From contig CM049319.1 of NCBI GenBank assembly GCA_026874595.1, positions 3,068,601 through 3,132,600 of the forward strand: a stretch of 64,000 nt of DNA, written 5' to 3'. Under the pieces are notes generated by a model. It made no database searches, had not been told where the DNA came from, and was given only the letters and a program-made list of their open reading frames with translations. Of this stretch, positions 2,140 to 59,489 are shown in pieces (position 1 is the first letter of the stretch; each line of letters starts with the position of its first letter). A program made the translations under genes and the position numbers. The DNA is from Sipunculus nudus. Taxonomy: Eukaryota > Annelida > Sipuncula > Golfingiida > Sipunculidae.

Positions 2140-2851
2140 ATGTGTGTTAACTTGCAGTCAGCCTCACATGGGTTGTCCCGTGTGTTAAATTGCAGTTAGC
2201 CTCACGTGGGTTGTCCCGTGTGTTAACTTGCAGTTAGTCTCACATGGGTTGTCCCGTGGGTTAACTTGCAGTTAGCCTCACATGGGTTGTCCCGTGTGTT
2301 AACTTGCAGTTAGCCTCACATGGGTTGTCCCGTGTGTTAACTTGCAGTTAGCCTCACATGGGTTGTCCCGTGTGTTAACTTGCAGTTAGCCTCACATGGG
2401 TTGTCCCGTGTGTTAACTTGCAGTCAGCCTCACATGGGTTGTCCCGTGTGTTAACTTGCAGTCAGCCTCACATGGGTTGTCCCGTGTGTTAACTTGCAGT
2501 CAGCCTCACATGGGTTGTCCCGTGTGTTAACTTGCAGTCAGCCTCACATGGGTTGTCCCGTGTGTTAACTTGCAGTCAGCCTCACATGGGTTGTCCCGTG
2601 TGTTAACTTGCAGTCAGCCTCACATGGGTTGTCCCGTGTGTTAACTTGCAGTCAGCCTCACATGGGTTGTCCCGTGTGTTAACTTGCAGTCAGCCTCACA
2701 TGGGTTGTCCCGTGTGTTAACTTGCAGTCAGCCTCACATGGGTTGTCCCGTGTGTTAACTTGCAGTCAGCCTCACATGGGTTGTCCCATGTGTTAACTTG
2801 CAGTTAGCCTCACATGGGTTGTCCCGTGTGTTAACTTGCAATTAGCCTCCA
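2140..2851. repeat. 38-bp minisatellite, about 18 tandem copies
   Basis: A 38-bp unit containing AGCCTCACATGGGTTGTCCC and GTGTGTTAACTTGCAGT is repeated head to tail about 18 times with few differences. The main variants are GTTAGCC versus GTCAGCC, clustered toward the two ends and the centre respectively. The unit resembles single-copy sequence at about 230-290, 5,665-5,700 and 6,046-6,100 (TTGTCC...GAGTTAGCC), so it probably expanded locally from one of the duplicated modules. Confidence 0.95.
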
Positions 2852-14327: not shown

Positions 14328-14563
14328 TGTGGTAGAGCGTATCTTACTCTACTATAACACTTACTCCTGAGAATGTCGGGTAAGTATCCTCAGCGTGGGA
14401 AGAAGTAGTTGTCAGTACTTCCGTGGGTACGATCCAATCAAGCCATGGGGTCTTCTTCTTCCGAGGGGTCAAGGTCGGGGTCGTCTCCACCAAAACCCGG
14501 AGGTAGCTCTCGATCATCCCGGAGACTGCTATCTACTGAGGCAGTCAACCAAAATCTACCACA
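14328..14563 (-). repeat. 3' LTR of the TatD element
   Basis: 236 bp, differing from the other LTR only at 14,448 (G here, C at 25,311). Both ends carry the inverted TGTGGTAGA/TCTACCACA. The short open frames on the plus strand are present in both LTRs and are not genes. Confidence 0.95.
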
Positions 14564-14578
14564 CTCTTCCCCCTTTTC
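14564..14578 (-). promoter_or_regulatory. Polypurine tract of the TatD element
   Basis: Read on the minus strand the tract is GAAAAGGGGGAAGAG, directly against the 3' LTR, as expected for priming of plus-strand DNA. Confidence 0.88.
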
Positions 14579-14984
14579 TGAAATGCGTCTTACTGTAGCA
14601 GAAACTTGAAAACAGACTATTTATGAGAAAACACGTAAGGGGAACAAATATTTATGATAATGGTAGGAGACATTCTATAAACGGTGCATTCCAACTGCTG
14701 GCACCTCAAGTTTCATCATTATGACAACAGCAAATAAATTAAACAGTGACACGTTGACACAACTGAACGTTAACTTAAGGCTATGAAATAGGAACTGCAT
14801 CAACAATAGTATAACAGGCTGAACAGGCCACTTGCTTAAATATCAAGCAGAAAGCTCTTGCAAAAAACAAAAACTACAGAATCCAATGATGACATAGGGA
14901 TAGCCTTCTTAGCCGCCAACTATGTCAATTGGAATAAAAGACCTTATATAGTATAAAAAGAACTGCTAATAAGTAATCACCCTT
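14579..14984 (-). other. 3' untranslated part of the TatD element
   Basis: About 400 bp between the TatD stop codon and the polypurine tract, AT-rich and without an open frame of note. There is no trace of an envelope-like ORF. Confidence 0.7.
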
Positions 14985-15555
14985 TCAAAAATGGCCATAC
15001 AGACTTGAGGCATTGCTGTTGCACTGTGCGATAAGCTCTGAGACTGAACATGAGCGAAGTGAGGCAACCTTAGAAGCTGTTGGTGAGATGTCCCAAGGAG
15101 ATGCTGCCAGATAAGGGCAGTCCGATTCGAGCAGGATTCGGTTCTCCGGTAAATGCATAACCGCCGATTGTGTAGACTGCTTCCTGAAAATTGTCCCCGT
15201 AAAACCAAAATAGCAATTTGGCAAGGCTCTTGCCCACTCTTGTAATTCTAACTCATCCCCCGAAAAGCAATGGCGGTGAATTTTGGCACTAGCTAGTTCC
15301 TTGTCCTTGATGAGCTGCAGTGTGCGTCCTGCAGCCATCCCTGTCCCTGGGTCACGACAATGCAGGATCAATACGGGCACGTTATGGTGTTGTTTAAATA
15401 GGTGAAACGCCTTTCCCAAGAATTCTGTTTGTGCTGTTTGGGACTCTTTGCTGGTTTTAGTGTGCTCTAATCCGAGCTCCCCAAATGCAATACATTCTGG
15501 TGTTGCTTGCAACTCGTCCAATTCCCTGATTCTCACATCAACTTCGGATACCTTT
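14985..15555 (-). pseudogene. C-terminal half of the retroelement-borne TatD nuclease
   Basis: About 190 codons on the minus strand encode the C-terminal two thirds of a TatD-family metal-dependent hydrolase. In order it shows GELGLE (metal-ligand Glu), ILHCRD (His), HRHCFSG (His), a GFTG block and LLESDCPYL (Asp), then a stop after SSLYGHF. The HRHCF-G and GFT blocks resemble animal TATDN2 more than TATDN1/3. The first residues visible in the open frame come from the inserted LTR. The true upstream part lies at 19,704-19,915, and the frame is continuous across the insertion once the insert and one CCTTT copy are discounted. Catalytic residues look intact, but the insertion must inactivate this copy. 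Family members act as 3'-5' exonucleases or AP-type nucleases; activity here is inferred. Confidence 0.9.
15551..15555. other. Target-site duplication (left) of the nested element
   Basis: CCTTT, identical to 19,704-19,708. Confidence 0.95.
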
Positions 15556-15740
15556 TGTTGTGACCTGTATGAACTCATTTCTATGCAGTCATTGTAGTTT
15601 TTTGTTTCTTGTGCATGTGTAGTAGTAGTAGTTTTTGTTTCTTTCTTTGTAGGTCATATGTTCAGTTTTCTGATGATTAAAGCCTACACTAGGGTTCAAG
15701 AGTGAATTTGAGCTATCCTTGTTACTTCTCAATCACCACA
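15556..15740 (+). repeat. 5' LTR of the nested element
   Basis: 185 bp. It contains TTTCTGATGATTAAA (15,667-15,681), the exact reverse complement of the segment just past the LTR end. A (TAG)n run lies near 15,618-15,630. Confidence 0.97.
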
Positions 15741-15756
15741 ATTTAATCATCAGAAA
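15667..15756 (+). promoter_or_regulatory. Putative self-priming pair (LTR segment and primer-binding segment)
   Basis: TTTCTGATGATTAAA at 15,667-15,681 pairs perfectly over 15 nt with TTTAATCATCAGAAA at 15,742-15,756, which begins one base after the LTR and runs into the ATG. In Tf1/sushi-type elements the mRNA 5' end folds back onto such a site and is cut to prime minus-strand synthesis. By analogy the transcript would start near 15,667, giving U3 of about 111 bp and a leader of about 90 nt. The base pairing is seen; the mechanism is inferred. Confidence 0.75.
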
Positions 15757-18700
15757 TGGAACGCCTGCTACGTCCTCAAGTGTTTGAAATCGACCCGTCT
15801 CACCCAGAAGCAGCCAAACGATGGACCCACTTTTACAGAACTTTTGAAAACTTTATTGGGGTCATTAAACCCGAAAAGGGGACAGACATCGAAATCATAA
15901 AACTCAAAACTCTTATAAACTATATATCTGCTGACGTGTTCGATTTTATTGCTGAGGCTGAAACATATACTGCCGCAATAAAAATGCTCAACACCCTATA
16001 CGTGAAACCTAAAAATGAGGTATTTGCACGTCATGTTCTTGCCACTAGACGCCAGGAGGCTACTGAAAGCCTTGATGCATATATGCAAGTTCTGAAGTCA
16101 CTGAGTAAAGAATGTAATTTTCAGGCCGTTGATGCAGATCAAAACCGGAATGACTACATTCGTGATGCCTTCATTAATGGACTACAGTCTAATTCCATAC
16201 GCCAAAGGCTTCTAGAGAACACAACTCTGACACTGCAGACTGCTTTTGATCAAGCCAGATCACTTGAGAGTGCTCAAAAACAAAGTGCAACTTATCACTC
16301 GTCCTCTTACATGCTGAATGCCGCCACAAACAAACCACTTAGCACAGGCAAGAAAAGTTCTTTGTTTCCAGATGAATGTGATCCCCGTCCTAGTGATAAT
16401 CTAATGGCAGCGGCCTCATACAAATCTAGCTGTTTTTTCTGTGGAAACCCACGGCATCCTCGGAGTAGGTGCCCAGCTCGAGATGAGGTATGCCATCGAT
16501 GTCAAAAGAAGGGGCATTTCTCAAAAGTTTGCAGGTCTGCACCAAGTAAGAATGCGTCAGCTATTGTCCCTTCTACACTTGCAACAGTCACTGCTACAAC
16601 TGGAACAAGTAATTTACAGAGAACACTGGTTAAGTGCAAACTAAACGGTCAGTACGAAACTGTTGTTTTGCTAGATACAGGAAGCTCTGACAGCTATATA
16701 GACACTGAGCTGGTGAAACAACTGAACATTGACTTAATACCTTGCCTCAGCAAAGTGAAAATGGCTGACTCCTCACTCAATGTAGATATTGAAGGATACT
16801 GCTATGTTACCGTTAGTTTGCTAGGGCAGGAGTATACTCAAGTAAAGCTCCTAGTTCTTAAATCTCTCTGCGCTCCAGTGCTGCTAGGCCATGACTTTCT
16901 TGGACAACACTCCTCCTTAGAAGTTGCGTTCGGAGGATCAAGGCCCCCACTCAGGTTGAACTCTGTCACCCCTGCTTCTGTGAGTGCAACAACACTTTTT
17001 AAACACCTCACAGCTGACTGCCACCCAATAGCTGTGAAGTCTAGACCCTTCTCAGAGGAGGACCGCAACTTCATCCGTCAGGAAGTAAATAGGTTGCTAG
17101 AACACAAAATCATTGAACACAGTGAGTCACCCTGGAGAGCCCAAGTTTTGGTTACCAAGGATGAGAGACACAAAAAAAGGATGGTGGTTGATTATTCCCA
17201 GACTATCAATCGTTTCACTCAACTTGACGCATACCCCCTTCCGAGAATCGATGAAATGATTGAAAATATCGCTCAGTTCCGCATCTTCACTACCCTGGAC
17301 TTGAAGAGCGCCTACCACCAAGTACCTATCCTTGAACAAGAGAAACATTTCACTGGTTTTGAAGCCGACGGGAAACTCTATCAGTTCACTTGCATTCCTT
17401 TTGGTGTGACAAACGGTGTGGCTGCGTTTCAGCGGACAATAGATAATATAATCGCAGAAAAAAGGCTATGCGGAACCTACGCTTATGTTGACAATGTAAC
17501 TGTTTGTGGCATGAATCAGCAAGAACATGACGACAATCTCCAGAAATTCTTGCAAGTAGCAAATCAAAAGAAGCTAGAATTCAATGAAACAAAGACTGTA
17601 TATTCTACAGAAACACCGAACATCCTAGGCTACACAGTCTCACATGGCAGTTACAGACCTGACCCAGAACGTTTAAGACCATTGCTTGAGCTTCCTCTTC
17701 CCCAAACAAAAAAGGAACTTGAGAGAGTATTGGGTATGTTCTCTTACTATGCTCAGTGGATCCAAAACTTCTCCACTAAAGTGCATCCACTGGTCTCATT
17801 TCAGTCATTCCCTCTAGCCAAGGAAGCTGTTGAAGCATTCAGAGCCCTGAAACAGGACATAAGCTCAGCAGTAGTAGTAACAGTTGAGAGGAATGTTCCC
17901 TTAGTCGTAGAGACAGATGCCTCTGAGTTTGCGATTGCTGCTACTCTCAATCAAAATGGTAGACCTGTTGCCTTTTTCTCACGAACACTGAATGCCTCTG
18001 AACGCCGCCATCCAGCTGTAGAAAAGGAGGCATACGCTATCGTGGAAGCACTGAGAAAGTGGAAACACTACCTGCTTGGAAATCATTTCCAATTAGTGAC
18101 TGATCAGAGATCTGTCAGTTTTATGTTTGACAAACAGAACAGAGGAAAGATCAAGAATGAAAAGCTCCAAAGGTGGCGCATTGAACTCGCAAGCTACAGT
18201 TATGACATTGTGTACAGATCAGGAGAGAAGAATGTAGCACCTGATACTTTCTCTCGCATTCAGTGCTCCATGGTTACAAGTGATGAGAAAACATTGAAAC
18301 ATCTCCACGAATCTCTGTGTCATCCAGGAGTGACTAGAATGATTCATTTTGTGAAATGCCGTAACCTCCCCTACTCAGTTGATGACATTCGCAAGTTGTG
18401 TAGTTCTTGCCCTGTTTGTGCTGAGCTTAAACCTCGATATCAGAAGTTTCAAGGCAAACTGGTAAAGGCCACCCAACCACTGGAGCGACTCAACATAGAC
18501 TTCAAGGGCCCTTTGCCCTCCAGCACAAAAAACCGCTATCTGTTAGTAGTCATTGATGAGTACTCACGTTTTCCTTGGGCCTATCCATGTCCTAATGTTG
18601 ATGCTGACTCTGTTATTAAGTGTCTTACATCTCTCTTTTCCACTTTTGGATTGCCAGCATATATTCACTCTGACAGAGGAACTGCATTCATGTCATCAGA

Positions 18701-19370
18701 ACTAACAAACTTCCTGCATAGTCGAGGTGTGGCCACTAGCCGTACAACTGCTTACAATCCGCAGGGAAATGGGCAGACTGAAAGGTACAATGGTGTTATC
18801 TGGAAAGCTGTCAATCTTGCTCTCAGGTCCCATGACCTTCCTGTCGCAGCTTGGGAACATATGCTTCCAGATGTCTTACATTCTCTGAGATCCCTGCTGT
18901 GTACCGCAACCAATGCAACTCCACATGAGAGAATGTTCGGGCATCAAAGCCGTTCAGTAAGTGGTTCTTCTGTTCCGACCTGGCTGACCAAACCTGGGAA
19001 GGTGCTACTACGTCGTCATGTTCGGGCTAGCAAATATGAACCTCTAGTAGAAGAGGTTGACCTACTGCAGGCTGCTAATCCAGCTTACGCCCATGTTCGT
19101 TTACCTGATGGGCGTGAAACTACCGTTTCTGTGAGACACCTGGCACCTAGGGGCGACCCGAGTCCATCCACTGTTGGAAATGAAGAATCTGCTCTTCCTG
19201 ATGTAACAGACAGGGACCATGAATCTGCAAACAAAGATGCTGTCACACCATGTGCCCCTGTTACAGCTCAGCCAGAGACACTCACTCCTTTTCTACAGAC
19301 CGAGCAATCTGTAACCTTCCCTGCGGACTCTGTCCCTGCCAGATGCACGCGCTCTGGACGAGAATACTAA
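15756..19370 (+). CDS. Gag-pol polyprotein of the nested Ty3-type element
   Basis: 1,204 residues in one frame, no frameshift or stop. Order: capsid-like region (about 1-210); two CCHC knuckles (CFFCGNPRHPRSRC and CHRCQKKGHFSKVC, about 226-260); retropepsin with LLDTGSS near 306 and VLLGHDFL near 375; RT near 430-620 with FTTLDLKSAYHQVP; RNase H with VETDASEF, EKEAYAI and VTDQRS; integrase with an HHCC finger (HESLCH...CPVC) and a D,D(35)E core (NIDFKG, HSDRG, GQTERYNG). The tail carries an R-x-L-APRG-like end typical of integrase C-termini. The start ATG overlaps the last base of the proposed primer site. Oddity: the RT catalytic box reads YVDN (residues 577-580), not YxDD, so one conserved metal-binding Asp is Asn. 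All other catalytic residues are present. Confidence 0.97.
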   Translation: MERLLRPQVFEIDPSHPEAAKRWTHFYRTFENFIGVIKPEKGTDIEIIKLKTLINYISADVFDFIAEAETYTAAIKMLNTLYVKPKNEVFARHVLATRRQEATESLDAYMQVLKSLSKECNFQAVDADQNRNDYIRDAFINGLQSNSIRQRLLENTTLTLQTAFDQARSLESAQKQSATYHSSSYMLNAATNKPLSTGKKSSLFPDECDPRPSDNLMAAASYKSSCFFCGNPRHPRSRCPARDEVCHRCQKKGHFSKVCRSAPSKNASAIVPSTLATVTATTGTSNLQRTLVKCKLNGQYETVVLLDTGSSDSYIDTELVKQLNIDLIPCLSKVKMADSSLNVDIEGYCYVTVSLLGQEYTQVKLLVLKSLCAPVLLGHDFLGQHSSLEVAFGGSRPPLRLNSVTPASVSATTLFKHLTADCHPIAVKSRPFSEEDRNFIRQEVNRLLEHKIIEHSESPWRAQVLVTKDERHKKRMVVDYSQTINRFTQLDAYPLPRIDEMIENIAQFRIFTTLDLKSAYHQVPILEQEKHFTGFEADGKLYQFTCIPFGVTNGVAAFQRTIDNIIAEKRLCGTYAYVDNVTVCGMNQQEHDDNLQKFLQVANQKKLEFNETKTVYSTETPNILGYTVSHGSYRPDPERLRPLLELPLPQTKKELERVLGMFSYYAQWIQNFSTKVHPLVSFQSFPLAKEAVEAFRALKQDISSAVVVTVERNVPLVVETDASEFAIAATLNQNGRPVAFFSRTLNASERRHPAVEKEAYAIVEALRKWKHYLLGNHFQLVTDQRSVSFMFDKQNRGKIKNEKLQRWRIELASYSYDIVYRSGEKNVAPDTFSRIQCSMVTSDEKTLKHLHESLCHPGVTRMIHFVKCRNLPYSVDDIRKLCSSCPVCAELKPRYQKFQGKLVKATQPLERLNIDFKGPLPSSTKNRYLLVVIDEYSRFPWAYPCPNVDADSVIKCLTSLFSTFGLPAYIHSDRGTAFMSSELTNFLHSRGVATSRTTAYNPQGNGQTERYNGVIWKAVNLALRSHDLPVAAWEHMLPDVLHSLRSLLCTATNATPHERMFGHQSRSVSGSSVPTWLTKPGKVLLRRHVRASKYEPLVEEVDLLQAANPAYAHVRLPDGRETTVSVRHLAPRGDPSPSTVGNEESALPDVTDRDHESANKDAVTPCAPVTAQPETLTPFLQTEQSVTFPADSVPARCTRSGREY

Positions 19371-19506
19371 ATCTTACCCTACCAGTGCATTGCTCCGGCC
19401 CAGAATCTTAAAGATTAACTTTTAAGAATGTCCCTTACTGAACAGATTCTCATTTGTCTTCAAGAAGTTAATTTTAAATAACACGATCTGTGACCTTTTT
19501 CCACCC

Positions 19507-19518
19507 AGAGGGGGAAAA
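19507..19518 (+). promoter_or_regulatory. Polypurine tract of the nested element
   Basis: AGAGGGGGAAAA directly upstream of the 3' LTR. Confidence 0.92.
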
Positions 19519-19703
19519 TGTTGTGACCTGTATGAACTCATTTCTATGCAGTCATTGTAGTTTTTTGTTTCTTGTGCATGTGTAGTAGTAGTAGTTTTTG
19601 TTTCTTTCTTTGTAGGTCATATGTTCAGTTTTCTGATGATTAAAGCCTACACTAGGGTTCAAGAGTGAATTTGAGCTATCCTTGTTACTTCTCAATCACC
19701 ACA
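19519..19703 (+). repeat. 3' LTR of the nested element
   Basis: 185 bp, no difference seen from the 5' LTR; followed by the CCTTT duplication at 19,704-19,708. Confidence 0.97.
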
Positions 19704-22199
19704 CCTTTCTTATGCAACGCGGATGTAATCCAAATGCGACTTTGACCCTTGGGTCCTGGGCGACTTGCCGGTAACGTGCCCAATGACTGAGATATACAAA
19801 ATTTGCCTCAGCACCCAGCAACTTTATATGTGAGGACTTGGGTATGTATTCGGACAGTGAATTGAGCCTTTCGTGTTTGAAGAGCTTATCAAGGTGGCAA
19901 TGGAAGTCAATCAATGCCAAGTCTTTATTGAGCAAGCAAACCTGTTGCTGAACTGACTCTGGTAAATCCCTCAGATCTTGGACCCATTTGTCGGGCGTGA
20001 CACGTTGGGTAACCTGTTTGGCTGTCCCCATCACTAAGTCTGCTGGTAATATGACCTCGTGCCCTAACATGATTTCATTGGGTGTGTAACCGGTGGTCCT
20101 ATTAACCGTAGAATGGAGAGCCATGGTCAGCAGAGGTAAGTCCCTATCCCACGTGCGAATGTCATTCTCCAGGTAGCAACGGATCATCTGCAGGACTGTC
20201 CGATTCTGACGTTCGACCTGCCCATTAGAAGCAGGATGATACGGCGTTGTCCTGGTTTTAGCTATCCCCAGAACCTGACACAAGGTAGAGAACAAGTTGG
20301 ACTCGAAGTTTTGTCCTTGGTCAGAGTGGATTTCTATCGGACATCCAAAGGTAGTGAAAAATCCCATCACAAGCCTTTCTGCAACAACACCAGCTGATTG
20401 TTCCGGGATAGCAAAACATTCTAGCCACTTCGAAAACTGGTCAAAGACCATGAGTATATATCTGTTTCCATTTGTACTCTCTGTGAATGGCCCGAGGATG
20501 TCTATATGGATTCTCTCCATTGGGAATCCGGCTTGATACATCCCCAGTCCTGCCTTTGCTTTCTTTGGTGGTTTTTTGTTCCTACTACAAGTGTCACAAG
20601 TCTTGACGTATGATTCAGCATCTCTGGCCATATGATACCAGTGGAAAGAGCTCTGGAGACGATGGAGAGTTTTGTCCCGTCCTAAATGCCCAGATACCTT
20701 CAAGTCATGACAATATTCTAATACCTCTCTTCGGAGTACAGCCGGCACAACTAGGCATATACGGAATGCAGGGTCTGTCTCCTTGGCTTCCTTGAGATAC
20801 AACACTTCATCTTTAATCTCCAGAGGTGTCCTCCTCATACGTTGGCGTATGGGTGACGAGTCGTCTGTATTGATATTTTGTGTGATCTCTGATAAGCACC
20901 CAAGATCTAGGTCGTGTTGTGTGAACACGTCCTGGTATTCAAACAGCAACTGATGCACTTGTGTCATGTGTTCATCAGGGTTATCTCTGCTTGTTCTCAC
21001 ATGTAGGTCTTTCAAGTGGTCAGGTAAGTTGGAAGAACCCGTAACTGAGGTTTGTGCCGATGGAAGCACACAGGCCGCCTCAGCATTCCCCTCTGCCGGG
21101 CCCAGTCCAACTGACCTGACACAAAGTGGCTCTGGTGGGATGATTTCTACCAACTCCACTGCTGACCCAATCGGCTGGTCGCGTCTAACTGATATGTTTC
21201 TGTTGGTGTCATTTATGGCTTCCAAATATCCAAGCTGATTGGTCACAGTGTTTGCAAGCAGTAAGCCATTCACATCACCCTTGGCTTCTATAACGTACGG
21301 TGTATCCTTAGATCCAATGACACAGATTGGTAGCAACGACCTTGTGTTTGGTGGAAAAACTGCTGATTTCTCTGCAACAACCGTAGACACTGCACAAGAC
21401 ATGTCCTTTGAATTCTTTCTCAAGGAACCCGTGATGCAGTCATCAAGTATATCTATTTTGCAATTTGCAAAATCAACGACGCACCTATTGTCAATCAGAA
21501 TGTCCAAACCAAGCAGGATTGGGTAGGTTACCTTGGCTACATAGGCGTCACATGAATAGATGTTCGAACCCAGTTTCATATTTAGTCGTGAAACCTTCTG
21601 GGCAGGTATGCATGCATCCGGTCCGCCTATCCCGCGAAGTACAGCAGTACCGACTACTTCAATTTCTCCTGGTAGGGAATCTCGTAATACCTCACTAATG
21701 ACTGTGACCTGTGCTGCACTGTCCACTATGGCATTCGTCGCTATACCATTAATTTGCACTGGGACAGCAAAACTTAGACCTTCAGCCTTTCGGATGAGAG
21801 CTTCTTGTTCAGAATGCTTGACATTAACATTCTCACCTTCTGTTAACTCTCTATCTTGGGAATCCGTACCTATGAGCTCAACAAGCTTCTTAAGAGTATC
21901 CCCACCAAATTCCTTTGTCGACTGGCCCGTTTCATATGAAATGGCATCTGCATAACTAACCTCCGTGATGGAATGTGGTGTAGCTCTTGAGGATATGGGC
22001 ACTGAGGCTGATGAACCAATGTCAGATGTTAAAGTATATCCATGAGTGCTATCTTTGACCGAGTCATTAATCCTTTGCACTTGTTGTTGTTGATTTATTG
22101 TTAATGGTGTTGTTGTTAATGGTGGACCCCCCTCGGGTTTAGGTTGGCCTCGATCAGTAAACGGGGTGGACCTGTGGCCTGCAGAGTCACCCCTTATTC
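19704..22199 (-). pseudogene. Pol of the TatD element: retropepsin, integrase and N-terminal TatD (RT/RNase H missing)
   Basis: Open minus-strand frame of about 830 codons, entered by -1 frameshift from gag; the first in-frame ATG is at 22,080. In order: a linker; retropepsin with IVDSAAQ as active site and ILLGLDIL; a region ending PIRQRMRRTP that normally precedes RT; then directly the pre-integrase segment; an HHCC finger (CHDLKVSGHLG...CDTC); an integrase core with HIDILG, HSDQG and GQVERQN spaced D,D(35)E; and finally LIDFHCHLD, the HxH start of a TatD domain with GLHPRCIRK just before the nested insertion. Around 500 residues of RT and RNase H expected between linker and integrase are absent although the frame is unbroken. 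Integrase and TatD are joined near 19,925-19,945 after ESVQQQV, without the usual integrase C-terminus. Domain order is seen; function is inferred. Confidence 0.9.
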
Positions 22200-22206
22200 T
22201 TTTAAA
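22163..22206 (-). promoter_or_regulatory. -1 programmed ribosomal frameshift signal at the gag-pol junction
   Basis: On the minus strand the last gag codons read TCT TTA AAA GAA TAA, containing the heptamer T TTA AAA (22,206-22,200) in the correct phase for -1 slippage. Six bases later GGGGTG (22,193-22,188) can pair with CACCCC (22,168-22,163), leaving a 19-nt loop. The pol frame is -1 relative to gag, closed by a stop just upstream and open from the heptamer onward. Slippery site, spacer and stem match the standard retroviral arrangement; use in vivo is inferred. Confidence 0.8.
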
Positions 22207-22995
22207 GAATCACCTTCTGACGAATCTGGCTTTTTTGTGCCAAGAGGGCAATCTCTCTGGAAGTGCTCTTTCTGGTGACACCGGAAACATGATAAGCCTT
22301 GAGGAGATCTGGGCGGTGTACCTGGGGACTTTGATCTCGGAGGCGTTCTAGACCTCAAGAGCTGTCTCATCATAATTTCCAGGTCTTCCATCCTCTGACT
22401 TATCTCTTTTTGGATGTTTCGTTGTGTTGCCGACTCCATGGCCACTGCTGATGACCTTACCTGATAATCAGACTCACCTTCCGGGTGGAGATCAGCATTG
22501 GCGAAACTGAGCTTTTTTATAGTGGCGTTACCTTGAAGTTTTCCATAAATTGCATTCCGATTATTGATTGCATTTGTAACATAACTAATGGATTTGTAGA
22601 GTCTTTTGGGTTTTTTGTCCATTGCCACCGCCGCTGCGCGCTTGTTCGCACATCCCTTCAGAAAGTGTTCAACACTTATTTGCTCAACCGTTTCCTCAAG
22701 AGCTCCTGGGAAACCATCCATTACTAAGAAATTGATTCTCTGTCCAAATTCTTCCAGGGACTCACTGGCTTCCTGCTTTACATAGGGGAGACTCCGCCGT
22801 ACGGTTATTGGCGCATCCTTCACTCCAAACCTCCTAGAGAGCTTTTCCTTAAGTATTTCATAATCGTTCCCTATGTGGAGTCCTCTCACATACTCAAGGG
22901 CCTTTCCGCTCAATGAATCTAGTAGCCTCTCGGCTGTCTTATGACTTGACCATCCATATCGACCAGCATAGCGTTCCAGCTGATAATAAAATCAT
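22194..22995 (-). CDS. Gag of the TatD element, C-terminal part (capsid and zinc knuckle)
   Basis: Minus-strand frame from about 22,995 to the stop at 22,194. It begins with a capsid-type block (QLERYAGRYGW, then ERLLDSLSGKALEYV), contains the coiled MRQLL region and ends with an SR/SP-rich stretch and one CCHC knuckle, CFRCHQKEHFQRDC. Then follow the frameshift heptamer and stop. The first ATG in this frame is at 22,913, inside the conserved capsid block, which shows that this is not a separate gene but the continuation of the upstream gag frame after a 1-nt indel. Confidence 0.85.
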
Positions 22996-24118
22996 GCCAA
23001 GACTTATCACCCGAAAATATCGGCAGTTTTGGTGGTGGGGGGCTTCTGCACCTAGACTGTCGTCCTCGATGGTACCTTTCCGGTGATGAAGAGCGGTCAC
23101 TATCAGAACCACTGAAACTTTGTCTTTTATTGTAGCTCTGTCTGCTAGTCTGTCGTCCTCTCGAAGGGCTACGAGAGACTGAACCTGTCCCCCGGTGCCT
23201 CCTACTCTTTCTGTATTTATGTTCCAAGTCATCATCAGCGAGGAAACCATGTATGTGATCATCTCTAAATATATCCCTCCGAGGGCCTGTAACTGTGGAG
23301 TGAGATCCCCTTTCTTCACTTCGACAAGGTTGTCCATATTTCACATGACTAGGCTTGTCAAATCTTTCTGGTGAACTGGAGTAGGGGGAGCCACACCGGT
23401 TTCTGGTTTGATTATAACCTGGGGCAAAATACTGGTACTCTGGTGTGATAGGCTTCCTTTCATAGCTGCCATATGGAGGTCGCCTGAGGTGATCACGTTC
23501 CCGAGAATATGGTCTGTGAAATATTTCACTGACGGATCTATGTGGCTTAATGGGTTCAAAAGCAGATTGGAATTGATGACAATTTCTGTTTTCAGCAGTT
23601 GGCCCAGCTCGCTCTGCGACAAACAGAGTCTGATTCTGCCTGTCATGTACATTTCCTATAGCTTGATTAGCTTGTGCTGGCTCATCCGACCTCTGTTGGT
23701 AAATGCTGCTTTTTGGCAAAGCAGACATAATTTGATCAATTTTGTCATCAGGGTTGGGTTTTGTCATTTGACTGGCAGTCACAGTGCTGCCCCTATCCCA
23801 TATACCAGCAGCATAAGAGTGCATACCATTTGATCCAGAGCCATTATCTTGGTACAGATTGGGTTGAAAGACAGAGCTCTCTGACTGAAGACCTCTATGT
23901 CCTGGAGTAGGCACAGGATTTATAATGATGGAACCATCATGTATCAATTTTGCCCAGTCAGAAGCAGGGTAGTTGGTAACCTTCTCCAGGTCATGAATGC
24001 CAAAATCAGGTTTGACTTTGCGTATTGTAACAATTGCTTGTGCAGAGCCACAGGTAAGCACAAATGGCAGCCAAGAAACAAGTTCTGGGACAGTTGCAGT
24101 GCACAAGTTCAATGCCAT
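22982..24118 (-). CDS. Gag of the TatD element, N-terminal part
   Basis: Minus-strand frame starting ATG at 24,118. The N-terminus is hydrophobic and I do not recognise it. The middle is low-complexity and rich in Arg, Ser, Pro, Tyr, with SRSPSRGRQ and SDSDRSSSP tracts. It ends with PPPPKLPIFSGDKSWHDFI, the usual lead-in to a Ty3-type capsid. The frame continues out of register to a stop at 22,919, but homology switches to the next frame at about 22,982-22,993 (an A/T run), so one base has been lost there or two gained. No slippery heptamer fits that point, so I read it as mutation (or assembly error) rather than a second programmed shift. Confidence 0.82.
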
Positions 24119-25170
24119 GATGGGTGAATAAATTATCTGATATACTACTGATAATTAGAAAAAGAGAGTTTGAAATCACAAGCTGTTAAGCCGCAAGCAA
24201 TGGGTAAAGTAATTTCAAAAAGTATAATAAACTGCAAATACTAATTTTTCACAGTTATCAATTGGATTGACTACACAATTAACAATGTAGTTATCAATTG
24301 CAGTGAACAAACAATGCAAATCTGGACCACAATTATAATGTAGGAGATGTTAAAAATACTGTAAGTGTAGTCAGAGTTGCCTATGGTCACAAAGTAAAAC
24401 TTTAAATAGACATCAGGGGCATGTGCATACACTTGCACATACACAGATATAATGATAATACACTAAGAAAACTAGTGCATGAAGTCCTAAGCAACAACAA
24501 ATTTTATGCTGTTACTTATCTTGTCTCTCTCTCTCTTTCTTTTTTTTTTTTGTTTTATTTAATGTTAATTTTATGTGCCCACAAGATCATAAATGGAAAC
24601 TTGTGTGGCTTATTTACAACATGTCAAAATCTATGTATTAAAGGATGTTCCCATATACAAGAGGGAAGATGAACAAAATAGTCAATAAGCAGGGTACTAT
24701 AAGCCAGCAAAATAGTCCTTGGTAGGAATTATACAAAGAAATTTGATTTCACTGAATGATGGATAACGCAAGAGAGACTGAGACCTTATAAATTATAGAA
24801 TAAAAGGACTGTTGTGAGGTAGGCCGAATTGAGTATGGACGAATTTATCAGTAATCAAAGTCGTCACGGCTACAGCACGCCACGATTGACGTCAGATTCA
24901 ATCGTGACCTACTACAATTTGAATAGGGCTAACTGACTCAGGTAAATTACTGACAACCTGCCAAGAATATATACAGGCTACCGGAAAAATAACACAGAAG
25001 AACCTGTGTCCGCTGCTGCAGCAATAATTTGCAACAGACACCGCGGACTACCTAGGGTAGGCCGAGATATAAAGTATGTTGCGAGCTGGTTACCGGCCGG
25101 ATTCGGCCAGTACGAACGAAATTGACAACCAAATGTTTATCGACCTCGTTTATAAAATTTAAGCCCGCCC
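24119..25170 (-). other. Untranslated leader of the TatD element
   Basis: About 1.05 kb between primer site and gag ATG, without a convincing ORF. It holds a (CT)n/poly-T tract near 24,525-24,551, two GTTATCAATTG blocks near 24,254 and 24,290, and a strong hairpin at 24,881-24,906. A long leader would fit packaging or internal-ribosome roles, but nothing shows this directly. Confidence 0.7.
24881..24906 (-). promoter_or_regulatory. Perfect 9-bp hairpin in the leader
   Basis: CACGATTGA (24,881-24,889) and TCAATCGTG (24,898-24,906) pair around an 8-nt loop. It lies within 300 nt of the primer binding site, where dimerisation or packaging elements often sit. Function unknown. Confidence 0.6.
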
Positions 25171-25188
25171 CATCTAGACTCGTCACCA
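25171..25188 (-). promoter_or_regulatory. Primer binding site of the TatD element
   Basis: On the minus strand TGGTGACGAGTCTAGATG begins two bases inside the 5' LTR, as expected for complementarity to a tRNA ending in CCA. The first 11 bases differ at two positions from what I expect for a common animal tRNA-Ser 3' end (TGGCGACGAGG); I cannot assign the tRNA firmly. Confidence 0.7.
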
Positions 25189-25190
25189 GA

Positions 25191-25426
25191 TGTGGTAGAG
25201 CGTATCTTACTCTACTATAACACTTACTCCTGAGAATGTCGGGTAAGTATCCTCAGCGTGGGAAGAAGTAGTTGTCAGTACTTCCGTGGGTACGATCCAA
25301 TCAAGCCATGCGGTCTTCTTCTTCCGAGGGGTCAAGGTCGGGGTCGTCTCCACCAAAACCCGGAGGTAGCTCTCGATCATCCCGGAGACTGCTATCTACT
25401 GAGGCAGTCAACCAAAATCTACCACA
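25191..25426 (-). repeat. 5' LTR of the TatD element
   Basis: 236 bp; one base different from 14,328-14,563. Followed by AAGT. Confidence 0.95.
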
Positions 25427-25430
25427 AAGT

Positions 25431-47451: not shown

Positions 47452-48741
47452 ATTTAATCTGCATGGCTTTTTAGCTCAGCTGACTGTAAGTCATCTGAGC
47501 TACAGTCGTGGTCCATTGTCTGTCGTCCGTCTGTCTGTCCGGCCGGCCGTCTGTCTGGATGTCCGTCCGTAAGACTGGCACATTTCGACACCATTGGACC
47601 TACGAATCTGAAATTTGCCATACAGTTAGATGTCCCAAAAATCTCCTAACATGCCAAAAATTGGGTCAAGAGAACTTCGTTCCTTCGAGATATTAAGGAA
47701 AAACCTCAATTTTTTATTAGAAAAATAATAAAATTTTCTATTTTCACACTTCAGGACTGCCTGATATCAAAACCACTCATCTCGTTTTCTTCATATTTAC
47801 CATAAATATTCCTCTATATAGTTCCTATGTACATGCCAGAAATTAAGTCAGTATTATTTAATTTCAAAAAGTTATGGGCTCATTTAATCTGCATGGCTTT
47901 TTAGCTCAGCTGACTGTAAGTCATCTGAGCTACAGTCGTGGTCCATTGTCTGTCGTCCGTCTGTCTGTCCGGCCGGCCGTCTGTCTGGATGTCCGTCCGT
48001 AAGACTGGCACATTTTGACACCATTGGACCTACGAATCTGAAATTTGCCATACAGTTAGATGTCCCAAAAATCTCCTAACATGCCGAAAATTGGGTCAAG
48101 AGATCTTCGTTCCTTTGAGATATTAAGGAAAAACCTCAATTTTTTATTAGAAAAATAATAAAATTTTCTATTTTCACACTTCAGGACTGCCTGATATCAA
48201 AACTACTCATCTGGTTTTCTTCATATTTACCATAAATATTCCTCTATATAGTTCCTATGTACATGCCAGAAATTAAGTCAGTATTATTTAATTTCAAAAA
48301 GTTATGGGCCCATTTAATCTGCATGGCTTTTTAGCTCAGCTGACTGTAAGTCATCTGAGCTACAGTTGTGGTCCATTGTCTGTCGTCCGTCTGTCTGTCC
48401 GGCCGGCCGTCTGTCTGGATGTCCGTCCGTAAGACTGGCACATTTCGACACCATTGGACCTACGAATCTGAAATTTGCCATACAGTTAGATGTCCCAAAA
48501 ATCTCCTAACATGCCAAAAAATTGGGTCAAGAGATCTTCTTTCCTTTGAGATATTAAGGAAAAAACCTCAATTTTTTATTAGAAAAATAATAAAATTTTC
48601 TATTTTCACACTTCAGGACTGCCTGATATCAAAACCACTCATCTGGTTTTCTTCATATTAACCATAAATATTCCTCTATATAGTTCCTATGTACATGCCA
48701 GAAATTAAGTCAGTATTATTTAATTTCAAAAAGTTATGGGC
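47452..48741 (+). repeat. 430-bp tandem repeat, three nearly identical copies
   Basis: Copies start at 47,452, 47,882 and 48,312 with only scattered differences. Each begins with AGCTCAGCTGACTGTAAGTC then ATCTGAGCT, a hairpin (AGCTCAG.TGAC...GTCA.CTGAGCT), followed by GGTCCATTGTCTGTCGTCC and GTC-rich sequence. The repeated open frame starting with MVHCLSSVCLSG reflects this GTC tract and is not a gene. Confidence 0.95.
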
Positions 48742-49650
48742 CCAAACATAATGGACTTTGTAAAAAAATCAGGAAAGATATTTGGTCACTTAAGACCAAA
48801 AGTGTTAAAGGTAGGGACTTTTTTCAGTAATACAACTTTAATTGATCAAAATTTAATTGTATACCAAAAATTAGATCAAAATCTGTTTAATTTTTTTAAA
48901 TATTGGCAAAAATATAAAATTGGTACCTTAAATTTCGCCCAAGTTTGACCATGGCACTTTTTTTACTGTAAGTACTGTGGATTTAATTTTCACAGCATGT
49001 TTTTGTTAGCATTTTGTCTGTTAACAACAAAAATTTGAAACCAGTTGATCAAAAACTGTAGATTTTATTCAAGTTTTCATGCCCCATGTCACATCAAGTT
49101 TACATCAAGCTAGTGTTATGCAGTTTGCTAGAGCTCAGCTCCCCAGCTTCAGCTCTAAGTTCCTTAAATTTAGCATACAGTTAGATGTCTCCAAAATCCC
49201 CTACCATGCCAAGAATTTTATCACTAGGACTTAATTCCTTCGAAATATTAATGAAAAACTTCATTTTTCCATTAAAAACCATTGTTACACTGTAAGATTG
49301 CCTAATATCAAAACCACTGATCTGACTTTGATCATATATAATATACATATTTTTCTATACATTCACTATGCACATGCCAGAAATGATGTCAGTATTGCGT
49401 AATTGTTTTAAGTTATGGGCCCAAACATAATGCACTTTTTAAAAAGTCAAGAAATATATTTACTCCCTTAACAAGAGGATTGCTGTAGCTAGAGATTTTT
49501 TTGTCAGGGATGTAACATTATTTAATCAAGATTCAATTGAATACCAAAAATTAGTTCTGAATTTTTCAAATTTTATAAGTTATTAGTATAAATATAAAAT
49601 TAGTACCTTAAATTTTGCCCAACTTTGACCATGGCACGTTTGTTTCCTGA
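48742..49650 (+). repeat. Diverged extension of the 430-bp repeat family
   Basis: 48,742-48,960 and 49,420-49,640 are diverged copies of one another (CCAAACATAATG.ACTTT, ATACCAAAAATTAG, AATATAAAATT.GTACC, TTTGACCATGGCAC). 49,150-49,420 is a diverged copy of the latter part of the 430-bp unit. A whole family unit of about 650 bp was therefore duplicated, and its first part then amplified in tandem. Confidence 0.8.
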
Positions 49651-54600: not shown

Positions 54601-57600
54601 GATTTGGATACACAGTGTGACACCAAACTCTCATAGGTCTGATAACTGTTGTTTGCTCTGTGCTAGCCCTGGTGGTGTAACCCGGAAAATCTTGCTATAA
54701 AAAGCAGAGGTAAAAATGAAAAAAAAAATCTGGAACAACTGAAGTGAATAACCAATGCATGATGAGCTTAGTTGTTGTGATTGACAAAACATTTTTGTGG
54801 GCTTGTAATTAATTTGAGAATGGTAAAGGTATGGGTTTATAGACTGATATCACCAACAAGGTCAGTCTAATTTGACTTTACACTTTGTCTTCCTGGTCTC
54901 TCGGGCTGTTCATTCTTGTAGCTTTTGTTGGCTCCCTAAGGAGCATACAACCCAAGCAGCCATATCAAGAGCTAGAAGGTTATTTGTTCTACATTTGCCT
55001 GCTGCCCATGACCAGTACCGATTCACTCCTGGATCTAGAGAGCCTACCCTTGTGGCAAAGACATTTAGGAGTCTTAGCACAAATGGTGGTCAGAGTTGGA
55101 CACGAACCCACAACCTTCCGGTCACAAGTCCAGAGCCCAAACCATTAAGCTGCCATGCTCCAGAATATTGACATTTTCAGACCTGGGGTCAATTCTGAAT
55201 TAAAGGGAAAATTAAATGAATTTGATTTGAATTTAAAAATATGAAAATGAATAAGAATTGAAATTGAAAAAAATTTGAATTGACCCCAGGTCTTGAGGTT
55301 TCAAAGGGATGTAATTTCATGCTTTTCATGGTCAGGGGTACATTAATTTCTGTCTATTCATTTTAATGAATAATTGCTAAAATCATACTTTAATTGTCAT
55401 TATAAGTACCATATCAGCTCTACCAATATAAAAACAGGAATTGAGTCAAGTGACATGAGCATAATGGTATTAGTTAGTATTTGAAGGATTACCATTAAGA
55501 CATCACACCTGAAAGTCTGAAACTGTGTTCAACAGTATTTTACATTATATTGATGCCCAGTGGGCACCTAGAACCACAAACACCTTTATCAATGCAGGCC
55601 ATAAGTATTGAGAGTTATTAATATTACATATACAAACTTTTTGAACATTTCTATTCTGGGATAATTCTATTCTTTCTCCTTAATACTAATAGAATTCAGA
55701 ATGGCTGAGGTAGAGGTATTTTCTGTAACAGACTGTGCTGTATGTCAGGTCTAGAGGAAGAGGGGGAGGCAGCCACGGATCCTTCTTCCGTGAAGATGAC
55801 GACGACGACAATGGTCCTGTGAGAAGCCATTTTGGTAGATCCACTGATGATGGACCACAGCTCTACACCATATTTAAAGGGGAGGTAGGCCATGTGTTCA
55901 TTTTTTAGAATGGATAACTTACAGATTTGGATAATTTGTATTTATAGGAATATACCCTTAATTTTGATATGTGACCTGTGAAATCTTGGTTTTAGTGTGT
56001 ATGTAAAATGGCAGCCCCCATGAATGATTTTTAGATTAGGAGAAATAAACATGTCGAGGTTCAATAAGAGCACAGGAATGTTACACGAAAGTACTCTGAG
56101 GACAGTATTCAGGCAAAAATCTATCTGCAGCGATAGTGTAATGGCAAGGGGACATGTACCAGTAAAGTAAAGAGCAGAATATTTCTTCTTTTTTTTTTGA
56201 CCATACCCAAATCCTCAAATTACAGAAGGGTGCATCTATTGATCAGATTGTAGTTATACTTCCATTGCTTACACATCCCAACCAGTGTTGGGTAAACCAT
56301 GAACTGCTACACAGAACACTTATTTCTACATCTTTTCATGGCTGTAACCTTAAGACACAAAGTGTTTCCCAGTAAGATATTCACACTAAAAGATAGCCTT
56401 TAATGTTTCCTCAGTAAACAATACATTTCTTACAAAGGAGATTTATTGTATCCGCCAAAACGAAGTTTTGCGGATACTATGTTTTTGACCGGGTTCCGCC
56501 GCCGCCGCCGCCGCCGCGTTCGTTTCCGGAGAACTCCTCTGAGACTACTGGACAGATTTTTCCGAAACTTACACAAATTATCGGGTCACATGTGAACTGG
56601 TGCCTAACCAAGTGACCTTGACCTCTGACCTTTCGTCTCTGCCCAGCGTCCGTTTGTGCGTCTGTTTACACACATAAACCCATATATCTCGGGAACCGTT
56701 TGACCGATCCGGAAAATTTTTTTACACAAATGTAGCCCTGGGATAGCTTTATAACATACACAACAAAAGGTGGCGCCACCTGCAACCATGTTTGCACAGT
56801 GTCCATCTGTTCATCTGCCTGGAGTTAAAATCACTCATATCTCTGCAGTGGTTTGACTAATTCACCTAAAATTTGGCATGCATATACATCCTAGATAGCT
56901 TTCTCAATTTTATGACAGGTGGCGCCACCTACATTCACGTTAACGCTCCACACATAAACCCATATATCTCGGGAACCGTTTGACCGATCCGGAAAAAAAT
57001 TTTACACAAATGTAGCCCTGGGATAGCTTTATAACATACACAACAAAAGGTGGCGCCACCTGCAACCATGTTTGCACGGTGTCCATTTGTTCATCTGCCT
57101 GGGGTTAAAATCACTCATATCTCTGCAGTGGTTTGACTAATTCACCTAAAAATCGGCATGCATATACATCCTAGATAGCTTTCTTGATTTTATGACAGGT
57201 GGCGCCACCTTCATTCACGTTAACGCTCCACACATAAACCCATATATCTCGGGAACCGTTTGACCGATCCGGAAAAAAATTTTACACAAATGTATCCCTG
57301 GGATAGCTTTATAACATACACAACAAAAGATGGCGCCACCTGCAACCATGTTTGCACAGTGTCCATTTGTTCATCTGCCTGGGGTTAAAATCACTCATAT
57401 CTCTGCAGTGGTTTGACTAATTCACCTAAAATTCGGCATGCGTATACATCCTAGATAGCTTCCTTGATTTTATGACAGGTGGCGCCACCTACATTCATGT
57501 TAACGCTGCAGACATCCAAGCTCATATCTCGGGAACCGTTTGACCGATCCGGAAAAAAATTTAACACAAATGTAGCCCTGGGATAGCTTTATAACATACA

Positions 57601-59489
57601 CAACAAAAGGTGGCGCCACCTGCAACCATGTTTGCACAGCGTCCATCTGTTTGTCTGCTGTGGGATAAAATCACTCATATCTCTGCAGTGGTTTGACTTT
57701 TCCACTTGAAATTTTGCATGTGTATATATCTTGGATAGTTTCTCGTTCAAATAACAGGTGGCGCCACCTACAATCATGTTTTTGTGGCAGAGATCCAATA
57801 CTAATATTTTACATATGTAACTTTATATCCCCTTGCCACTCAATCCATGCCTCACTTCACCCGTCCTTCTCTGATTTTGGCGGATACACGTAGTCGCTTG
57901 TCGACTACCCGTATTCTAGTTTTATCAAGAACTAAAATATGACTGAGTTTATAGTACCAGGTATTGCATAGTCACCTTTCTCACCTTATTCTGTATCTTT
58001 AATATACACAAATCCCAGGATCAAACTACATTATGATGTATGTTCTCATATTTTCATCAACTTTGTTATTGCTGATGAGGACACGGCAGTCATGAAAAGG
58101 TTATTCATGGTGAAAAGGGTTGGGCAATAAGCCATGCATTATGTATATATGGCTGGATTCAGATTATATTCAGTATGAATCACAGTATTTCATTATAGCC
58201 CCAAGAATATTTTGTCCTGGTCCAACATGTACCAAGGTTCCTTTTGTGTATTCCTAAATATAAAATGAAACCAAAGCATTTGTTAGTTTATGAAACTCCT
58301 CAAACACTGGTAATTTTTCTAAATTGTATAAATGAGTGATGGCCTTTCCAGTTTAGTTCCTTTTGAAAATGTGTAAATTTTATATTTTTTTCTTTTGAAC
58401 AGATTGTTACTCTTCATCCCTATGGTGTGTTTGTCAAGATACCAGGCTCCAAGAAACAAGGTCAGGGTTTATTTTACACTTTACTTACACCTAATGTTAT
58501 ACTGAGAGAGAGAATATTATACAGAGAGAGAAAGACTTATAAACCCATATTTGCTGTTGTAAAGATATATTATGAAGCCACAACAATTAGTGTCAATAAC
58601 CTAAATGATAGAATGTTTGATAAAAAAAAATTTTAACTACTGCTGTTGTTCAAGTGTAATTATCATATTCTGTTTTTGACAGGATTGGTTCACAAGTCAC
58701 AGATGTCAAGTACAAAGTTAGAGAACCCAGCAGACATGGCAGAGGTCGGAGACAGGGTTTACTGTAAGGTCATATCTGTACAGGTAAGAACTTTTATTCT
58801 TTGGGATGTAACCTTTTGCTTAGCTCCCTTCAATCATGCCAAGTTTTAAGCAAAGATTTTTATGTGCACAGAATATGTCATGCAGCATGCCTGTTGAGAG
58901 ATTTATATGTAACGACACAGCAGCATACATATTTAATGTGTAGCTCTGGGTTACCATGCAGAACAGGCAAAAGCATCTACAAAACCTATACATGTAGGGA
59001 TTCTTTTTGCTGGATAAGGATTTTGTATGCTGAATAGACACATATGGAATCTCACTTTACTTATTTCAATTTGTAGTCAATATCAATTCCACATGCCGAA
59101 TCCGCATTCTGTCTGTATGGGATCTTAGCTGTGTCTGACCTGCAGACTATTGGTGTGAAAAGAATTCTAGCCATTTAAGCAATGAAACTTGCATTCTGGC
59201 ATAATTCATGTTCTGAATAACCTTTCCTTGAAACCTAAAATTTCATCTTTTGGACCCTACTTTATTTTAGCAACTGGGTGAATGCAGTTTTAAGTACTTT
59301 AAATATCAAAACTGTTATTACTGTTCTAGATTTGTTGTCTGAAAAATTTACATCAAGGATATACAGTGAAATAATATCTCAACAATAATTGGTATTGTTG
59401 TAGGACGGTGGTCAGAAGATTGGTTTGTCAATGAAAGTGGTAAACCAGACTACAGGGGAGGACCAGGACCCTAACCAGGTACAGACTGC
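51655..59489 (+). CDS. ZCCHC17: ZCCHC17 (pS1D)-like protein with two S1 RNA-binding domains, 3' end not seen
   Basis: Eight coding exons: 51,655-51,870; 52,741-52,798; 53,846-53,946; 54,292-54,377; 55,749-55,884; 58,403-58,460; 58,683-58,783; 59,404-59,489. All have AG acceptors and GT donors and join without stops to about 280 residues. The first exon follows TTTCATTGCAG and encodes an Arg/Asp/Ser-rich tail, then IFKGE. Domain 1 reads YGVFVKMPGYRKQGLVH...VGDRVYVKVISVQ...IGLSMKAVDQRTGED. An RGRGGG/acidic linker follows, then domain 2 with YGVFVKIPGSKKQGLVH...LSMKVVNQTTGEDQDP. The MPG.RKQGLVH and SMKVVNQ.TG.D.DP blocks match vertebrate ZCCHC17, a nucleolar/splicing-associated protein that has one S1 domain and a C-terminal zinc knuckle; DHX8 is a weaker alternative. 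The last exon ends in phase 2, so more exons, perhaps including the knuckle, must follow. Confidence 0.82.
54503..54707. mobile_element. MITE with ~70-bp inverted arms in intron 4
   Basis: The left arm CTGCTTTGTATAGCAGGATT...CACCACCAGGGCTGGCACAG and the right arm are inverted copies (right arm on the minus strand: CTGCTTTTTATAGCAAGATT...CACCACCAGGGCTAGCACAG). The spacer is about 60 bp. No clear target duplication. Confidence 0.8.
54868..55160 (-). mobile_element. tRNA-derived SINE (minus strand) in intron 4
   Basis: Minus strand: CAGCTTAATGGTTTGGGC (A-box-like), then AGGTTGTGGGTTCGTGTCC with a B box. A body of about 230 bp extends toward 54,870. Overlapping open frames on the plus strand are antisense to the SINE and not genes. 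Confidence 0.65.
55179..55293. mobile_element. Short palindromic element in intron 4
   Basis: AGACCTGGGGTCAATTC and GAATTGACCCCAGGTCT are 17-bp perfect inverted repeats around an AT-rich 80-bp centre of GAATTTGAATT-like motifs. MITE-like; no target duplication seen. Confidence 0.75.
56448..57925. mobile_element. 1.5-kb element with four 280-bp tandem repeats in intron 5
   Basis: Starts with a hairpin GTATCCGCCAAAAC/GTTTTGCGGATAC, then (CCG)n. The right end contains TTTTGGCGGATAC, inverted relative to the left end. Between them, 280-bp units start at 56,671, 56,951, 57,231 and 57,511, marked by ATATCTCGGGAACCGTTTGA and two AGGTGGCGCCACCT palindromes per unit. No protein frame. Non-autonomous mobile repeat; class unresolved. 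Confidence 0.85.

What the first reader, a model, noticed from the sequence alone, without database searches (positions are those of the whole stretch)
14328..25426. LTR retrotransposon with a captured TatD/TATDN2-like nuclease fused behind integrase
Seen: LTRs, 4-bp duplication, PBS and PPT bracket one coding region whose pol frame runs from integrase straight into a TatD domain with HxH, Glu, His, His and Asp ligands all present. The nuclease is therefore inside the transposing unit, not a flanking gene. Known: TatD enzymes are metal-dependent nucleases; I know of no LTR element family defined by one. Inference: the domain could process cDNA ends, remove primers, act on host DNA damage intermediates, or replace a lost pol function. 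Near-identical LTRs (235/236) mean this architecture mobilised recently.
Basis: partly seen in the sequence, partly recalled or inferred. Interest (0 to 1): 0.92.

Follow-up and report, generated by a model that had tools for sequence, protein, structure and literature searches.

The report
Jumping genes with a nuclease gene
The odd element in this window is a damaged member of a group of virus-like jumping genes that carry, where retroviruses keep their envelope gene, a zinc-finger protein joined to a TatD-type nuclease.

Summary
The LTR element is real (LTRs 235/236 alike, 4-bp duplication, PPT) and TatD lies inside it. The stated architecture is not its native one: a second, complete LTR element (15556-19703) splits TatD, RT/RNase H is missing, and the integrase-TatD "fusion" is an in-frame deletion scar. 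Other copies in the same 1.43-Gb genome show the real layout: gag, pol, then a separate ORF3 (zinc finger plus TatD) in the env position. All six LTR-paired copies of the window family keep TatD sequence, though none keeps ORF3 whole. A wider search gave 90 zinc-finger-TatD matches; of the 30 returned with flanks, 29 have pol of this clade just upstream. In a second family 18 loci carry the 3' LTR with 17 distinct flanks; the one copy read end to end has identical LTRs and open gag, pol and ORF3. Integrase and ORF3 trees agree where well supported; between-family dN/dS is about 0.2 for ORF3, 0.1 for integrase. So this is an old, retained accessory gene rather than a one-off capture. It adds a new enzyme to the non-env ORF3s known from rotifer LTR elements. 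What step the nuclease serves is inferred only.

The parts
14328..25426 (-). Outer LTR element, defective copy of the ORF3 (zinc finger-TatD) clade
   Evidence: LTRs, duplication, PPT; five further LTR-paired copies in the genome
14324..14327 (.). Target-site duplication AAGT, left
25427..25430 (.). Target-site duplication AAGT, right
25191..25426 (-). 5' LTR (236 bp)
14328..14563 (-). 3' LTR (236 bp), 1 mismatch to the 5' LTR
25171..25188 (-). PBS-like site starting TGG; primer tRNA not identified
   Evidence: sequence
14564..14579 (-). Polypurine tract
   Evidence: sequence
22194..24154 (-). gag, read in two frames with the break between about 22919 and 22991
   Evidence: weak zinc knuckle below the cut-off
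19966..22209 (-). pol remnant: aspartyl protease, integrase zinc-binding domain and integrase core; RT and RNase H absent, integrase CTD absent
20807..20822 (-). Scar of the RT/RNase H deletion, shared with copy C5
19966..19969 (-). GGAT overlap where the integrase core is joined to ORF3 by a deletion of about 1.34 kb
19709..19968 (-). ORF3 remnant, first part: linker and TatD N part with HxH
14985..15550 (-). ORF3 remnant, second part: TatD C part with E, H, H, D
   Evidence: PF01026 E 1.5e-32
14580..14984 (-). 3' untranslated region, conserved in the five other copies at 96-98%
15556..19703 (+). Nested complete LTR element inside TatD: LTRs 15556-15740 and 19519-19703 identical, one gag-pol ORF 15756-19370, duplication CCTTT at 15551-15555 and 19704-19708

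Best explanation
The window holds a defective, trans-mobilised copy of a Ty3/gypsy-type LTR retrotransposon whose fuller relatives encode gag, pol (protease, RT, RNase H, integrase with CTD) and a third gene, ORF3, in the env position: a zinc-finger module joined to a TatD-family metal-dependent nuclease. Shown: the layout, its presence in several deep families of this genome, co-descent of ORF3 with integrase, purifying selection between families, and one recently moved copy with all three ORFs open. Inferred: ORF3 is an accessory nuclease that binds nucleic acid by its zinc finger and trims 3' ends of replication or integration intermediates, made from a spliced mRNA in at least some families. 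The window copy lost RT/RNase H and, by a second deletion with a 4-nt overlap, the integrase CTD and zinc finger, which created the apparent fusion; it moved with enzymes from other copies and was later hit inside TatD by a second element.
For: 6 of 6 LTR-paired copies hold TatD sequence, with 4-bp duplications at six sites, five exact and one with a mismatch. Copies C8, C11 and C17 have zinc finger plus TatD; C9, C11 and C17 have RT and RNase H. 29 of 30 zinc finger-TatD loci returned with flanks have pol of this clade within 1.5 kb upstream. C2 copy: identical 206-bp LTRs, ATAA duplication, open gag, pol and ORF3. 12 of 13 listed 505-aa rows have no stop in the match. Distance correlation r 0.974 over 11 representatives and the same five starred groups in both trees. 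Omega about 0.20 for ORF3 and TatD, 0.10 for integrase; lnL -11801.8 free against -12176.2 at omega 1 for ORF3. All six metal ligands in 27 of 32 loci. TatD fold in the model of P0121. C5 and C14 share the RT scar at different sites.
Against: No copy of the window family has a whole ORF3. Within that family the change ratio for TatD (0.67 and 0.70) resembles the protease part (0.72) and is above integrase (0.28), so selection is seen only between families. Ligands are altered or missing in 5 of 32 loci. One of 30 flanked loci (L053) has no pol upstream, and 60 of 90 matches were not examined. The splice-site-like sequence is weak or absent in 5 of 10 loci. No activity, expression or substrate was tested. 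Close pairs raise the distance correlation.
Confidence: 0.8

Rival explanations
1. One-off transduction: a host TATDN-type mRNA was captured by template switching into this element (LTR-mediated retroposition), so TatD is a passenger.
For: In the window copy the junction has a short overlap, the TatD part is truncated at its N side, and TatD relatives occur without pol in the same protein. The process is known in animals (PMC5408686 and PMC8232201, passages).
Against: The same ORF3 stands behind pol in six copies of the family and in other deep families, and both parents of the junction lie within fuller copies of the element.
Confidence: 0.03
2. ORF3 is real and retained, but serves against the host: it degrades nucleic acid of defence or sensing pathways, or acts by binding alone, not in the element's own replication.
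For: Placement apart from pol and its own start fit an auxiliary role. TATDN2 has been linked to R-loops in reviews (search listings only).
Against: No direct evidence; conserved ligands argue against binding alone.
Confidence: 0.25
3. Independent repeated captures of host TatD genes by several LTR families.
For: L055 is placed differently in the two trees, without strong support.
Against: The same zinc finger-TatD order, the same place behind pol and matching trees for five starred groups.
Confidence: 0.05
4. Assembly artefact or chimeric contig.
For: None found.
Against: The same order of genes on many contigs, with LTRs, duplications and open frames.
Confidence: 0.01

Closest known systems
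Bdelloid rotifer LTR retrotransposons (Vesta, Juno) with DEDDy exonuclease or GDSL esterase ORF3 (PMC5408684; abstract and passages seen)
   Same: LTR element of an invertebrate with gag, pol and an enzymatic, non-env ORF3; one of the enzymes is a nuclease acting on 3' ends; catalytic residues kept; role unknown
   Different: Different enzyme (TatD, a metal-dependent hydrolase of TIM-barrel type, with an N-terminal zinc finger); here the between-family dN/dS is about 0.2 and ORF3 tracks integrase, whereas the paper's passages report repeated gain and no clear departure from neutrality
Orchid Ty3/gypsy elements with an AlkB-type m6A demethylase ORF (PMC9289625; abstract seen)
   Same: Ty3/gypsy element with an added enzymatic ORF
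   Different: Different enzyme, plant host; activity was shown there in vitro and not here
Retroviruses and errantiviruses with env
   Same: Third gene behind pol; splice-acceptor-like sequence before it in some families
   Different: The product is a predicted nuclease, not a membrane glycoprotein
Animal TATDN proteins and bacterial TatD nucleases
   Same: TatD domain, ligands and fold
   Different: Zinc-finger N part, multi-copy, behind pol in an LTR element
LTR-mediated retrocopies of host genes (reviews PMC5408686, PMC8232201; passages seen)
   Same: Non-pol coding sequence between LTRs, junction with short overlap
   Different: Here the sequence is an inherited gene of the element, and the junction is an internal deletion

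Membership tests
LTR retrotransposon | Paired LTRs, target-site duplication, PPT | tested here: met
   Window copy; six pairs in the family, five exact and one imperfect duplication; C2 copy
Ty3/gypsy type | pol order protease-RT-RNase H-integrase | tested here: met
   C2 copy by Pfam; C9, C11, C17 by tblastn; the window copy itself lacks RT and RNase H
Ty3/gypsy type | RT phylogeny within a named Ty3/gypsy clade | not tested
   No reference RT set was used
TatD nuclease family | TatD domain with metal ligands HxH, E, H, H, D | tested here: met
   PF01026; 27 of 32 loci with all six; window copy has them across two separated pieces
TatD nuclease family | Nuclease activity | not testable with these tools
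   Needs purified protein
LTR elements with non-env enzymatic ORF3 (bdelloid kind) | Separate ORF behind pol encoding an enzyme, in more than one copy | tested here: met
LTR elements with non-env enzymatic ORF3 (bdelloid kind) | The enzyme is a DEDDy exonuclease or GDSL esterase | tested here: not met
   Only PF01026 in ORF3
env-type subgenomic expression | Splice acceptor before ORF3 | tested here: inconclusive
   Strong in 2, moderate in 3, weak in 3, absent in 2 of 10 loci; no RNA data
LTR-mediated retrocopy of a host gene | Foreign sequence present in one chimeric unit, parent gene elsewhere | tested here: not met

The most novel reading that the evidence does not exclude
An old clade of animal Ty3/gypsy elements carries in place of env its own zinc-finger TatD nuclease and depends on it for a late replication or integration step, such as trimming cDNA 3' ends or clearing repair intermediates; many of the multi-copy, single-exon 'TATDN2-like' genes of invertebrate genomes would then be this transposon gene.
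Probability: 0.35. Interest if true: 0.87.

Novelty: new variant of a known kind. Interest (0 to 1): 0.74.

Why it matters
It adds another enzyme class, with its own zinc finger, to those that LTR retrotransposons keep in the env position, in several deep families and with young copies whose three genes are open. That makes the open question of what enzymatic ORF3s do for such elements directly testable. It also warns that multi-copy TatD genes in animal annotations may be transposon genes, and that a striking domain fusion seen in one copy can be a deletion scar.

Tried and rejected
Host-gene capture as the main reading: held after and dropped when the genome search answered. Viral contigs: three protein scans and one LTR pattern gave no relative. 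Rfam at gathering threshold and a bacterial-code tRNA scan of the window: nothing. PBS tRNA and host species: not identified. Integrase relatives without ORF3 in the same genome: the search did not complete, so whether ORF3 marks the whole integrase clade is open. LTR copy number of the second family: not answered. Literature, open-licence papers only: TatD + retrotransposon 14 papers, none on this by title; TATDN2 + transposable element 6; TATDN2 + expan 29, 15 listed, none on this by title; TatD + integrase + gypsy 0; gypsy + LTR retrotransposon + ORF3 + nuclease domain 1, on Teratorn. Absence in print is therefore not shown.
Full report
What is in the window. The minus strand of 14328-25426 carries an LTR element: 236-bp LTRs with one mismatch, AAGT on both sides, a polypurine tract before the 3' LTR and a TGG-starting PBS-like site after the 5' LTR. 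A second, complete LTR element lies inside it on the plus strand (15556-19703; identical 185-bp LTRs, CCTTT duplication, one 1204-aa ORF with protease, RT, RNase H and integrase). It splits TatD. The frames on its two sides agree, by arithmetic on the coordinates with the duplication counted once. The outer element has protease and integrase domains but no RT or RNase H, and its gag is read in two frames.

First reading and its correction. The integrase has many relatives: 934 hits, of which the best 120 were listed, none with a precomputed TatD domain; the six read out have a C-terminal part behind the integrase core that the window lacks. The TatD C part matches nine proteins, seven of them of 445-600 aa with a zinc-finger part before TatD, best 60%; the match to P0121 begins in its linker. 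With only that, capture of a host gene looked likely. Then the genome search answered.

Copies in the same genome. The window lies in an assembly of 1.43 Gb in 153 contigs. A 301-base integrase probe gave 10 matches, six at 98-100% (one of them partial). The TatD C probe gave six, two of them partial. The LTR probe gave 15: six pairs, one single LTR and two distant ones. All six LTR-paired copies hold TatD sequence. LTR pairs differ at 1 (C14, C5), 4 (C9) and 5 (C8, C11, C17) of 236 positions. Duplications: AAGT (C14), ATAT (C5), CTAA (C8), CATG (C17), ATAC (C11), TAAT/TAAG (C9, imperfect), GTGT (single LTR). These searches report lower bounds.

True layout. C8, C11 and C17 have, behind the integrase region, a zinc-finger part and then TatD; C9, C11 and C17 have RT and RNase H; C5, C8 and C14 do not. 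pol ends in a stop and ORF3 starts at its own ATG about 135 bases later in C8 and about 70 in C2. Against these copies the window shows two deletions: RT/RNase H, with the same scar as C5, and about 1.34 kb from the integrase core into ORF3, with a 4-nt overlap GGAT. Both leave the frame open, so the copy reads as an integrase-TatD fusion. C5 and C14, at different sites, share the RT scar and have the youngest LTR pairs, so RT-less copies were moved by enzymes from elsewhere (inference). No copy of this family has a whole ORF3: C8, C11 and C17 are broken once by a stop or frame change, C5 and C9 keep only the last 85 aa, and C14 is split.

A clade rather than a copy. A search with P0121 gave 90 matches (324 candidates, 84 scored). 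Of the 30 returned with flanks, 29 have pol of this clade upstream on the same strand within 1.5 kb: 28 with integrase, one (L051) with RT-RNase H and an integrase stub; L053 has none. Three of the 30 are the window family itself. The other 60 matches were not examined. Two distant loci found through integrase (L014, L015) have the same layout. In one family 12 of 13 listed 505-aa rows have no stop in the match. Of the 18 loci of that family looked at, all carry its 3' LTR, with 17 distinct flanks. One copy of it (C2) was read end to end: identical 206-bp LTRs, ATAA duplication, open gag (689 aa between stops, zinc knuckle), pol (1472 aa, protease to integrase) and ORF3 (505 aa, PF01026 E 6e-41).

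Descent and selection. Of 32 loci 30 were kept (L051, L053 dropped for lack of integrase) and reduced to 11 representatives. Integrase and ORF3 distances correlate with r 0.974, permutation p 0.0001; close pairs help this. Each tree has five starred groups and they are the same five; L055 goes with the L034 group by integrase (87/91) and is left open by ORF3. Codon models: ORF3 omega 0.200, lnL -11801.8, against -12176.2 with omega fixed at 1; with a second model integrase 0.103, ORF3 0.215, zinc finger 0.210, TatD 0.201. Single pairs range from 0.06 to 0.80 for ORF3. Against selection in the window family: the within-family ratio for TatD (0.67, 0.70) is like the protease part (0.72) and above integrase (0.28), as expected of copies decaying after insertion. 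All six metal ligands stand in 27 of 32 loci. Zinc candidates C79, C82, H93, H98, C109, C112 (P0121 numbering) stand in 28, 29, 32, 31, 31 and 31 of 32. Proteins of the public set interleave with this genome's ORF3 lineages, at least three changes of label being forced by starred branches; that the protein comes from another species is clear for P0121 (its best match here is 55%) and assumed for the others.

Mechanism. The model of P0121 (mean pLDDT 78) matches TatD nucleases best (6l25, TM 0.83 by target; human TATDN3 0.79). TatD enzymes trim DNA 3' ends and act on related substrates (recalled, not from a call). The zinc finger suggests nucleic-acid binding (inference). I commit to this: ORF3 most likely trims or repairs the element's own nucleic acid late in replication, at about 0.45 for that step alone; action on host defence is the main rival at 0.25. 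A 3' splice-site-like sequence before ORF3 is strong in L014 and L015, moderate in L028, L055 and L057, weak in L030, L034 and L047 and absent in L053 and L054 (10 loci; scoring model from the recalled consensus). Splicing is likely for some families only.

Known kinds. Bdelloid rotifer LTR elements carry DEDDy nuclease or GDSL esterase ORF3s (PMC5408684, abstract and passages). Orchid gypsy elements carry an AlkB demethylase (PMC9289625, abstract). A TatD ORF3 did not appear in the searches listed under Tried and rejected. Hence: a new variant of a known kind.

Noticed in passing
window 15556-19703: A complete second LTR element with identical LTRs and one open gag-pol frame sits inside TatD; it inserted after the outer element.
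   Followed up: partly
G000 contigs C61, C62, C64, C65, C66, C69, C72, C74, C75, C89: Strong, stop-free TatD matches of bacterial type on contigs other than C1-C17, some almost alike, which suggests bacterial contigs in the assembly (bacterial origin inferred from score and length only).
   Followed up: no
G000:C1:109164528-109166407: TatD matches in three separate pieces over 1.9 kb, as expected of an intron-containing host TATDN gene.
   Followed up: no
protein P0130 (968 aa, public set): A TatD domain behind a gag-like zinc knuckle (E 0.0021, below the Pfam cut-off) in one protein: perhaps a second kind of TatD-carrying retroelement.
   Followed up: partly
copies C5 (L010) and C9 (L011): Both keep the same last 85 aa of TatD although C5 lacks RT and C9 has it, so copies look mosaic, perhaps by recombination during replication.
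   Followed up: no
paper PMC6962438: A figure legend lists TATDN2 among non-Hox genes inside the giant squid Hox cluster, next to transposon-like genes (passage); it may be a copy of this element gene.
   Followed up: no
window 62116-63648: Three neighbouring plus-strand ORFs of 118, 161 and 195 aa that look like remains of another mobile element (not searched).
   Followed up: no
window 2142-2849, 47452-48744, 56669-57780, 59500-59857: Tandem arrays with units of 38, 430, 280 and 37 bases at 87-98% match.
   Followed up: no
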